A DNA stretch of 37,764 bases from Candidatus Magasanikiibacteriota bacterium (GTDB lineage: Bacteria; Patescibacteriota; Patescibacteriia; Magasanikbacterales; UBA922), in the NCBI GenBank assembly GCA_016207245.1, contig JACQQA010000001.1:1-37764 (forward strand). The letters run 5' to 3'. Positions 7,803-31,044 of the stretch are shown one piece after another. The notes below the pieces were generated by a model that did not search any database, had not been told where the DNA came from, and saw only the letters and a program-made list of their open reading frames with translations. Position numbers and translations under genes: made by a program. How positions within the stretch are numbered: position 1 is the stretch's first letter; every line of letters begins with the position of its first letter.

Positions 7803-7901
7803 ATGTCAGAAAAATTGCCCCGCACGGAACAAATGTCGCGTCGTAAATTGGAAAAAAGGAGACTGACGTGGAATTTGAAAACGCCAAACAAGAGGTTCTG
7901 A
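7803..7901 (+). CDS. possible 32-residue basic peptide
   Basis: ATG 7803 to TGA 7899-7901, rich in Lys and Arg (MSEKLPRTEQMSRRKLEKRR...). AAGG lies about 10 bases upstream. The stop codon is formed by the first bases of the 30-bp inverted repeat 7900-7974. It could be a real small basic protein or chance; I recognise no family. Confidence 0.25.
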   Translation: MSEKLPRTEQMSRRKLEKRRLTWNLKTPNKRF

Positions 7902-7974
7902 CCCGGACCCCGTATTCTAGACACAAAGGTCGAAGATATTGTACCCTTTGTGTCTAGAATACGGGGTCCGGGTC
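7900..7974. repeat. perfect 30-bp inverted repeat
   Basis: Arms 7900-7929 and 7945-7974 are perfect reverse complements with a 15-base loop. The arm reads GACCCGGACCCCGTATTC then TAGACACAAAGG. No T-run follows, so it is not a classical terminator; it resembles REP palindromes associated with Y1 transposases. Confidence 0.85.
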
Positions 7975-7977
7975 ACT

Positions 7978-8084: not shown

Positions 8085-8106
8085 CAATTGTCATTTTTAC
8101 CGCTGG

Positions 8107-8126
8107 ATTCCCGCTTGCGCGGGAAT
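8107..8126. repeat. REP-like palindrome ATTCCCGC/GCGGGAAT
   Basis: 8-bp perfect stem with loop TTGC, inside the wider sequence CTGGATTCCCGC...GGGAATGACA. This type is common as an intergenic repeat in many bacteria. Confidence 0.7.
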
Positions 8127-8201
8127 GACAGAAAAACAGTAGAGATGATTGAGGATAATTTTTATAAAAACAAAACAACCCTCGGGTGAGAGTTGCTTGG
8201 G

Positions 8202-8280
8202 TGGTGGACGGAGGGGGAATCGAACCCCGGAAGCTAGGGTGATAATCCTGCTCGTGAGAGGCCACTCACAAACTCCGCCC
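8202..8280 (-). tRNA. non-canonical tRNA-like gene, anticodon uncertain
   Basis: 79 nt including an encoded CCA (8202-8204) with discriminator A. The acceptor stem can form 8 bp (GGGCGGAG with CTCCGTCC, one G-U), followed by a 4-bp T-stem with loop TTCGATT. The D-arm has a 5-bp stem GTGAG/CTCAC and a short 6-base loop. The anticodon arm is irregular: AGC-AGG pairs with CCT-A-GCT around an 8-base loop ATTATCAC, so TAT, ATT or ATC could be read and none fits cleanly. No long variable arm. It may be a specialised or decayed tRNA. An extended -10 promoter lies just upstream (8297-8302). Confidence 0.6.
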
Positions 8281-8296
8281 TTCGCCACCGGCGAAT

Positions 8297-8307
8297 ATTA
8301 TACCACA
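8297..8307 (-). promoter_or_regulatory. extended -10 promoter for the tRNA-like gene
   Basis: Minus strand TGTGGTATAAT with TATAAT at 8297-8302. The predicted start lies about ten bases before the tRNA-like 5' end. No good -35. Confidence 0.45.
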
Positions 8308-8312
8308 TTTAT

Positions 8313-8380
8313 AACAAAAGAGCTCCCTTGCGGGAGCTCCGAGATCCAAAGTGAGTGTTACTCACAAGAGGATTATCACC
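8313..8380 (-). ncRNA. predicted small RNA antisense to the tRNA-like arms
   Basis: A consensus promoter (8387-8414) predicts a start near 8380 and a strong terminator lies at 8316-8339, giving an RNA of about 66 nt. Its first 12 bases (GGUGAUAAUCCU) are the exact complement of tRNA-like bases 32-43. Bases 13-20 pair with 23-30 past one bulge, and 25-30 with 12-17. On its own it can fold GUGAGU-AAC-ACUCAC. Alternatively the segment is just an inverted partial copy of the tRNA-like gene. Confidence 0.45.
8316..8339 (-). terminator. intrinsic terminator of the small RNA
   Basis: Minus strand GAGCTCCC-GCAA-GGGAGCTC (8-bp stem, tetraloop GCAA) followed by TTTTGTTAT. Confidence 0.7.
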
Positions 8381-8386
8381 AATATG

Positions 8387-8414
8387 AGTATATCAAAAAA
8401 AATATTCTTGTCAA
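8387..8414 (-). promoter_or_regulatory. consensus promoter of the small RNA
   Basis: Minus strand TTGACA (8409-8414), 16-bp spacer containing eight Ts, TATACT (8387-8392). Expected start about 8380, the first base complementary to the tRNA-like anticodon arm. Confidence 0.6.
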
Positions 8415-30358: not shown

Positions 30359-31044
30359 CCTGTTAGGGACATAGACAAGCGCTTAAATTCTCCTGTCGTT
30401 TTGAGCCCCGACAGGGACGACCGATAGTAGCCAGGGGCTTTAGCCCCTGGAACAATAACCCACAAATATCCGAAGTCCCGTAGGGACGGCACATCGCTCA
30501 AAACAAATATTTCAAATTAAAATCAATATTGTTTCTTTTTAATAACTCCAGATATTCTTCTTCGAAACTCATTCTTTTATGATGTTCTTCTTGGTTATCA
30601 ATATATTTTCGAATAATACCGACCTGCGACTTGCTAACCGTAAACGCGCCGTAACCTTCTTGCCAAGAAAATATATTCAAATCCAAAAAATTTTCGTGTA
30701 TCCACTTTGATGAATTGCCTTTTATTAGTTGGACGGCTTTTGATACAGATATATCAGGGTTCAACGAAAGCAGCGTATGAATGTGGTCGCTAGTCCCGCC
30801 TGATTTTATTGTTTTAAAATTGTTTTTGTCGGCTATTCCGGATATGTATCTAAATAGGTGGCTTCTCAAATCTTTTGACAACAATCTTTTTCTTTCTTTT
30901 GTACTAAAAACAACGTGAAATAATAAATTTGAAAATGTGTTTGGCATATTTGTGCCGTCCCTACGGGACTACGATTTAAATGCGAATCTTTTTTTTCCAG
31001 GGGCTAAAGCCCCTGGCTACTATCGGGCGTCCCTAACGGGACTG
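30359..31044. mobile_element. IS200-type element within layered REP palindromes
   Basis: A Y1 transposase gene lies between mirror-image repeats. From outside in: CCTGTTAGGGAC (30359) with GTCCCTAACGGG (31029); CGATAGTAGCCAGGGGC... (30422-30450) with its complement (30997-31025), each containing the palindrome CCAGGGGC-TTTA-GCCCCTGG; and AGTCCCGTAGGGACGGCACA (30474-30493) with its complement (30950-30969). The layered hairpins are typical of REP-associated Y1 transposases. Confidence 0.8.
30498..30947 (-). CDS. tnpA: IS200/REP-associated Y1 transposase
   Basis: 149 aa. The HUH metal site is HIH at 55-57 (SDHIHTLLSL) and the nucleophile is probably Tyr115 (IIRKYIDNQEEHHK). Such enzymes cut and rejoin single-stranded DNA at hairpins. 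Length and motifs are complete, so it may be active. Surrounded by REP palindromes that are its likely substrates. Confidence 0.92.
   Translation of the reverse strand: MPNTFSNLLFHVVFSTKERKRLLSKDLRSHLFRYISGIADKNNFKTIKSGGTSDHIHTLLSLNPDISVSKAVQLIKGNSSKWIHENFLDLNIFSWQEGYGAFTVSKSQVGIIRKYIDNQEEHHKRMSFEEEYLELLKRNNIDFNLKYLF

What the first reader, a model, noticed from the sequence alone, without database searches (positions are those of the whole stretch)
8202..8414. Predicted small RNA complementary to the D and anticodon arms of a neighbouring tRNA-like gene
Seen: minus strand TTGACA-16 bp-TATACT (8387-8414), then a segment starting at the predicted +1 (about 8380) whose first 12 bases exactly complement tRNA-like bases 32-43, with 14 more pairs to the D-arm, then a GC hairpin and T-run (8316-8339). 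The tRNA-like gene lies 30 bases further on the same strand with its own extended -10. Inference: a dedicated anti-tRNA RNA, or a leader that folds onto the tRNA when the terminator is read through. I know of no described system of this layout.
Basis: partly seen in the sequence, partly recalled or inferred. Interest (0 to 1): 0.75.

Follow-up and report, generated by a model that had tools for sequence, protein, structure and literature searches.

The report
Odd alanine tRNAs with antisense partners
In tiny parasitic-type bacteria (Patescibacteria), aberrant tRNAs that look chargeable with alanine but carry the wrong anticodon are each encoded next to a private antisense RNA built to grip and unfold that one tRNA, which looks like a toxin-antitoxin pair made only of RNA.

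Summary
Window 8202-8280(-) is a tRNA-like gene with an 8/4 acceptor branch, an 8-nt anticodon loop, and the alanine identity pair G3·U70 with A73. Window 8316-8380(-) is a 65-nt RNA with its own promoter and terminator. Pairing to the anticodon and D arms begins at its predicted +1. Covariance searches found about 50 relatives in the order and elsewhere in the phylum. All 57 tRNA-like genes examined have a private antisense RNA, placed upstream, downstream or convergently, so it acts in trans. Pairing is kept by compensatory change: 95.7% of cells paired and 153 double changes; the cognate partner is best for 31 of 31 sRNAs. G3·U70 is present in 51 of 51 of the main set. In three genomes scanned, G3·U70 tRNAs with a non-alanine anticodon or 8-nt loop carry an antisense RNA; genuine tRNA-Ala genes showed none. 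Antisense RNAs without a tRNA-like exist; the reverse was not found. No protein is linked to the modules. Best reading: an RNA-only toxin-antitoxin-like module, in which an alanine-charged mis-decoding tRNA is neutralised by an antisense RNA. Toxicity, charging and expression are inferred, not shown.

The parts
8387..8414 (-). near-consensus sigma70-type promoter of the antisense RNA (TTGACA-16-TATACT, extended -10)
   Evidence: same layout in relatives, mean 10.4 of 12 consensus matches, complementarity begins 6-7 nt after the -10 in most
8316..8380 (-). antisense sRNA, about 65 nt
   Evidence: matched by the sRNA covariance model R3 (this sequence was among its 23 training rows), E 4.3e-11
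8369..8380 (-). sRNA 5' segment pairing with anticodon loop and 5' anticodon stem (toehold)
   Evidence: sRNA nt 1-8 mostly unpaired in the family (0.75 against 0.40)
8351..8368 (-). sRNA segment pairing with both strands of the D arm (8 + 7 bp)
   Evidence: equivalent pairing seen in relatives
8316..8340 (-). intrinsic terminator of the sRNA
   Evidence: conserved GAACTCCC-GGGAGTTC-TTTT in the family
8297..8307 (-). extended -10 promoter of the tRNA-like gene (TGTGG-TATAAT)
   Evidence: an upstream promoter-like site in relatives, mean 7.8 of 12 matches
8285..8289 (-). GGTGG in the 5' leader, complementary to CCACC at the tRNA 3' end (8204-8200)
   Evidence: GTGG present upstream in 31 of 51 members against 4 of 56 ordinary tRNAs
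8202..8280 (-). tRNA-like RNA: 8-bp acceptor, 5-bp D arm, anticodon arm with 8-nt loop ATTATCAC, 4-bp T stem, encoded CCA
   Evidence: fold; weak Rfam tRNA-Sec match, 28.2 bits; cloverleaf covaries in 31 members
8206..8213 (-). 3' acceptor strand; T8208 pairs with G8278 as G3·U70, followed by A73 at 8205
   Evidence: G3·U70 and A73 in 51 of 51 members while acceptor pairs 4-7 vary
8239..8246 (-). 8-nt anticodon loop ATTATCAC, target of the sRNA toehold
   Evidence: loop covaries with the sRNA
8164..8198 (-). terminator of the tRNA-like gene

Best explanation
Two small RNAs form a private pair. One is a tRNA-like molecule with the alanyl-tRNA synthetase identity element G3·U70 and A73 but an aberrant anticodon arm (usually an 8-nt loop, or a 7-nt loop with a non-alanine anticodon). 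If charged with alanine it would insert alanine at wrong codons or shift frame. The other is a short antisense RNA from a stronger promoter. Its free 5' end begins pairing at the anticodon loop, then invades the anticodon and D arms, destroying the tRNA fold or making a double-stranded decay substrate. The pair most likely behaves as an RNA-only toxin-antitoxin (addiction or abortive-infection) module: a stable tRNA-like toxin and a continuously made RNA antidote. Shown by sequence: the pair, its trans arrangement, covariation, alanine identity element, orthogonality in multi-copy genomes, lack of a linked protein, antidote-without-toxin copies. Inferred: transcription, alanylation, mis-decoding, toxicity, addiction.
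For: Cognate pairing best for 31 of 31 sRNAs, permutation 0 of 10,000, copies within a genome orthogonal. Intermolecular covariation, including unpaired loop bases. Partner found for all 51 of the main set and for six further tRNAs, in three relative orientations. G3·U70 + A73 in 51 of 51 with other acceptor pairs varying. In own genome (34 tRNAs) and 85 RF00005 tRNAs of G028/G070, G3·U70 tRNAs with non-Ala anticodon have an upstream antisense RNA; genuine tRNA-Ala genes lack one. Antisense-only loci at G071:C15 (two) and G070:C7 while no lone tRNA-like was seen. Diverse housekeeping neighbours, no shared protein across the order. Different modules at one chromosomal site in two close relatives (L046 against L096, flanks 85-93% identical). 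Stronger sRNA promoter (10.4 against 7.8 of 12) and unpaired sRNA 5' end.
Against: No expression, charging or toxicity data. The net cofold gain for the window pair is only -7.7 kcal/mol because both RNAs are well folded (family mean -14.6). Some related allo-tRNAs of other phyla could not be charged by E. coli enzymes or used in translation there (PMC7609411). An 8-nt loop leaves the decoding register uncertain; in one register some anticodons are alanine ones. Antisense-only loci are few.
Confidence: 0.55

Rival explanations
1. Regulated mistranslation: the missense or frameshift tRNA is a useful regulator and the antisense RNA a brake released under stress, with no addiction function.
For: Same anatomy; one module is kept at the same site in two species of the genus (L125 and L210); genuine tRNA-Ala genes in the scanned genomes are not targeted.
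Against: Patchy presence, several orthogonal copies per genome, different anticodon loops, replacement at one site and antisense-only loci suit a selfish or defensive module better.
Confidence: 0.2
2. Sponge: the sRNA regulates mRNAs and the tRNA-like, stabilised by its tRNA fold, titrates it.
For: Mutual complementarity is symmetric; sRNA has a conserved 3' part.
Against: The pairing part of the sRNA changes completely between copies and species while matching only its own tRNA-like, so no shared mRNA target is likely; invariant G3·U70 + A73 is unexplained.
Confidence: 0.1
3. The tRNA-like is a non-translating RNA, for example an AlaRS-binding or alanine donor RNA, and the antisense sets its level.
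For: Several related allo-tRNAs elsewhere were inactive in E. coli translation (PMC7609411); the D arm is reduced in some members (L015, L063, L120).
Against: Some members have ordinary 7-nt loops and clear Ile(GAU), Arg(GCG) or Trp(CCA) anticodons, L142 and L106 as full cloverleafs (L142, L106, L116).
Confidence: 0.12
4. Leader or attenuator in cis: the upstream RNA folds onto the tRNA when its terminator is read through.
For: Single-transcript fold of the window is very stable.
Against: Partner lies downstream or on the opposite strand in 15 of 51 members; separate promoters where compared.
Confidence: 0.02

Closest known systems
Allo-tRNAs with 8/4 or 9/3 acceptor branches (Mukai et al. 2017, as reviewed in PMC7609411)
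   Same: 12-bp 8/4 acceptor branch, G3:U70 in some, anticodons unrelated to identity with UAU, GCG and GUC commonest; one group was guessed to belong to transposons or toxin-antitoxin systems
   Different: Described from Clostridia, Proteobacteria and Acidobacteria, with a long variable arm and mostly Ser identity; the section read mentions no antisense partner; here the host is Patescibacteria and some members are canonical cloverleafs
Type VIII toxin-antitoxin systems (RNA toxin, RNA antitoxin; CreTA in PMC12737573; SdsR/RyeA from own knowledge)
   Same: Would have both toxin and antidote as RNA
   Different: CreT is an mRNA-like RNA that depletes a rare tRNA and CreA is a crRNA-like guide for Cascade; no tRNA-shaped toxin was seen there
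Type I toxin-antitoxin systems (hok/Sok kind, own knowledge)
   Same: Antisense RNA antidote; loop with a YUNR-like turn as the recognition point
   Different: The target is a tRNA-like RNA, not an mRNA for a small toxic protein
tRNA-Ala and tmRNA
   Same: G3·U70 and A73, tRNA-like acceptor and T arm
   Different: Genuine tRNA-Ala genes in the scanned genomes have no antisense partner of this kind; own genome has an ordinary tmRNA elsewhere
tRNA-Sec
   Same: Long acceptor branch, tight 5-bp/4-nt D arm in relatives; weak Rfam match
   Different: Below the gathering score, no long variable arm, no usable UCA anticodon register

Membership tests
allo-tRNA | 12-bp acceptor branch as 8/4 or 9/3 | tested here: met
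   8-bp acceptor and 4-bp T stem in the window RNA and in the order-level model; several relatives are 7/5 or 7/4
allo-tRNA | long variable arm with serine identity (typical form) | tested here: not met
   no variable arm; G3·U70 + A73 point to AlaRS
allo-tRNA | active in translation or aminoacylated | not testable with these tools
   needs experiment
type VIII toxin-antitoxin | both partners are RNA | tested here: met
   no linked protein gene; two RNA genes
type VIII toxin-antitoxin | one RNA is toxic, the other neutralises it | not testable with these tools
   only the antisense pairing and the antisense-without-tRNA asymmetry were seen
type I toxin-antitoxin | antisense RNA targets an mRNA for a toxic peptide | tested here: not met
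   the target folds and covaries as a tRNA cloverleaf
tRNA-Ala | G3·U70, A73 and an NGC anticodon in a 7-nt loop | tested here: not met
   identity pair met, loop is 8 nt ATTATCAC
tRNA-Sec | reaches the Rfam RF01852 gathering score | tested here: not met
   28.2 against 47 bits
cis attenuator or T-box-like leader | regulatory RNA lies upstream in the same transcript | tested here: not met
   15 of 51 partners are downstream or convergent
tmRNA | tag-encoding and pseudoknot domains between tRNA halves | tested here: not met
   79-nt RNA; the genome's tmRNA is at G000:C5:148774

The most novel reading that the evidence does not exclude
A new class of RNA-only toxin-antitoxin module in which the toxin is an alanine-charged tRNA that corrupts decoding and the antidote is a dedicated antisense RNA that unzips it, present in multiple orthogonal copies in Patescibacteria.
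Probability: 0.5. Interest if true: 0.95.

Novelty: categorically new. Interest (0 to 1): 0.9.

Why it matters
I know of no natural dedicated antisense RNA against a tRNA, and none appeared in the paper searches made. If the reading holds, a tRNA can itself serve as a toxin by poisoning the genetic code, and its antidote can be pure base pairing. It would also suggest a purpose for allo-tRNAs in other phyla, offers many ready-made orthogonal tRNA/anti-tRNA pairs, and gives a cheap addiction or anti-phage device in very small genomes. Automated annotation calls some of these genes tRNA-Val, -Ile, -Arg, -Ser or -Trp, so tRNA counts for these genomes may be partly wrong.

Tried and rejected
Cis attenuation or leader folding: rejected by the free orientation of the partner. 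Two-piece or extra tmRNA: ordinary tmRNA is present elsewhere. tRNA-Sec: below cut-off. Chance complementarity: rejected by permutation and covariation. General antisense control of tRNAs: in the scanned genomes no genuine tRNA-Ala gene has an upstream antisense RNA; the other high scores are mostly on the opposite strand, some of them other tRNA genes; tRNA-Asp C5:146838 (opposite strand, z 4.1) and tRNA-Thr G028:C3:259257 (downstream, score 43.5) were not followed further. Linked protein effector: none shared across the order; a Cys-rich zinc protein lies beside modules in two genomes only. Phages, plasmids and viral contigs: no match. Low-scoring sRNA-model hits (L228, L237, L241) look like plain terminators. 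The original allo-tRNA paper was looked up by a DOI from memory and not found; its content here comes from a review.

Full report
CHECK OF THE OBSERVATION. On the minus strand, TTGACA-16-TATACT (8414-8387) precedes GGTGATAATCCT at 8380-8369, the exact complement of AGGATTATCACC at 8249-8238, bases 32-43 of a tRNA-like gene at 8280-8202. Pairing runs on for 8 and 7 more base pairs into the D arm. A terminator closes the first RNA at 8340-8316, and a separate extended -10 lies before the tRNA-like gene. By itself this would be only suggestive: the ungapped complement scores about z 2 against shuffled flanks.

RELATIVES. A nucleotide search, a GTDB pattern scan and a tRNA-like covariance model found relatives in Candidatus Magasanikbacteria and elsewhere in the phylum; one more GTDB hit is labelled Gottesmanbacteria. 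All 51 distinct members of the main set have a complementary RNA nearby: 36 upstream, 11 downstream and 4 convergent on the opposite strand. Six more tRNAs with partners were found besides, giving 57.

COMPENSATORY EVOLUTION. For 31 pairs the cognate duplex is the best for every sRNA, mean -41.7 against -20.4 kcal/mol, and no permutation of 10,000 equals it. Copies within one genome (five in G070, four in G028 and G059) are orthogonal. On 43 members a 12-bp intermolecular helix is 95.7% paired with 153 two-sided changes, covariation 0.762 against 0.228 shuffled and at most 0.196 when slid by one to three columns; many of the covarying columns are loop bases that the cloverleaf itself leaves unpaired. 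The cloverleaf covaries too. The partner was chosen as the best local complement, which inflates pairing somewhat, and nine of the 52 members whose loop the search pattern located were left out of the 43: some because the ungapped register was wrong, others as duplicate seeds. The slid controls, the position at the predicted +1 and the conserved terminator make this bias a poor explanation.

WHAT THE TARGET IS. All 51 have G3·U70 and A73, the main alanyl-tRNA synthetase determinant being G3·U70 (PMC6451123, abstract), although acceptor pairs 4-7 vary with compensation. The models used to find them contain G3·U70, which biases this count, but they contain the other acceptor pairs too. Most have an 8/4 acceptor branch, a 5-bp D stem and an 8-nt loop of the form N-U-N-R-N-Y-A-N; the search pattern for the loop imposed part of this form. 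ARAGORN reads some of them as having a four-base anticodon. Others found in the own genome and elsewhere are tRNAs with Ile-GAU, Arg-GCG, Val-GAC, Ser-UGA or Trp-CCA readings, two of them full canonical cloverleafs in the fold, all with G3·U70 and each with its own antisense RNA. In the own genome and in 85 RF00005 tRNAs of G028 and G070, the G3·U70 tRNAs with a non-alanine anticodon have an upstream antisense RNA and promoter; genuine tRNA-Ala genes do not. A few other tRNAs there reach high complement scores, mostly on the opposite strand where other tRNA genes lie; one tRNA-Thr and one tRNA-Asp were not examined further. The type-A tRNA-likes of G028 and G070 come from the covariance search, since the Rfam tRNA search did not list them.

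MODULE BEHAVIOUR. The sRNA promoter is closer to consensus than that of the tRNA-like (10.4 against 7.8 of 12), complementarity begins 6-7 nt after the -10 in most, and the first eight bases are mostly unpaired (0.75 against 0.40), as expected of a toehold. Neighbouring genes are diverse housekeeping genes. One site carries two unrelated modules in close relatives with 85-93% identical flanks, while another module is kept with similar flanks in two species. An sRNA-only model finds antisense copies that have no tRNA-like (G071:C15, twice; G070:C7), and no lone tRNA-like was seen. This asymmetry is what would be expected if the tRNA-like is harmful without its partner; it rests on three loci.

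MECHANISM. Most likely the tRNA-like is made, folded, charged with alanine and able to enter ribosomes, where it inserts alanine at wrong codons or shifts frame; the antisense RNA, started from a strong promoter, docks on the anticodon loop and unzips the anticodon and D arms. Charging, decoding, toxicity and decay are inferred. The computed net gain is modest for the window pair (-7.7) and larger for the family (-14.6 kcal/mol), so speed of docking or co-transcriptional capture may matter.

COMPARISON. Allo-tRNAs (PMC7609411) are the closest RNAs: 8/4 branch, G3:U70 in some, UAU, GCG and GUC as commonest anticodons, and a published guess that one group belongs to transposons or toxin-antitoxin systems. 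Type VIII toxin-antitoxin (PMC12737573) is the closest system class. In what I read and searched no tRNA with a dedicated antisense RNA appeared; most subscription-journal papers and all preprints are outside the library searched.

VERDICT. The trans-antisense pair against an alanine-identity tRNA-like is established by comparative evidence (about 0.95). The toxin-antitoxin-like role is the best explanation (0.55) and needs experiment.

Noticed in passing
window genome G000:C5:158463, C2:31009, C9:38010, C5:155290: Four more G3·U70 tRNAs with non-alanine readings and an upstream antisense RNA lie elsewhere in the window's own genome.
   Followed up: yes
window 7899-7975: Perfect 31-bp inverted repeat with 15 nt between the arms, between the L31 gene and the tRNA-like gene.
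   Followed up: no
window 8102-8130; L096 1377-1405: REP-like palindrome ATTCCCGCGCAAGCGGGAAT near the module; a 96.6% identical stretch lies near the L096 module.
   Followed up: no
window 30997-31043: Match to Rfam Acido-Lenti-1 RNA above its gathering score, far from the finding.
   Followed up: no
L098, L107, L111 (G230:C10) and L015, L063 (G042): Modules sit beside copies of a Cys-rich zinc-ribbon-type protein in two families; three modules are spaced about 1.86 kb apart in G230.
   Followed up: partly
L046 (JACREP010000081.1): Contig labelled Gottesmanbacteria has flanks 85-93% identical to G001 of the window's genus, so it may be misbinned.
   Followed up: partly
L007, L127, L180, L106, L116: ARAGORN labels these antisense-paired G3·U70 tRNAs as ordinary Val, Ile, Ser, Arg or Trp tRNAs.
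   Followed up: yes
L170 (G028:C3:259257) and L136 (G000:C5:146838): A tRNA-Thr(GGU) and a tRNA-Asp(GUC) without G3·U70 also reach high complement scores to flanking DNA (43.5 downstream same strand; 34 downstream opposite strand); not examined.
   Followed up: no
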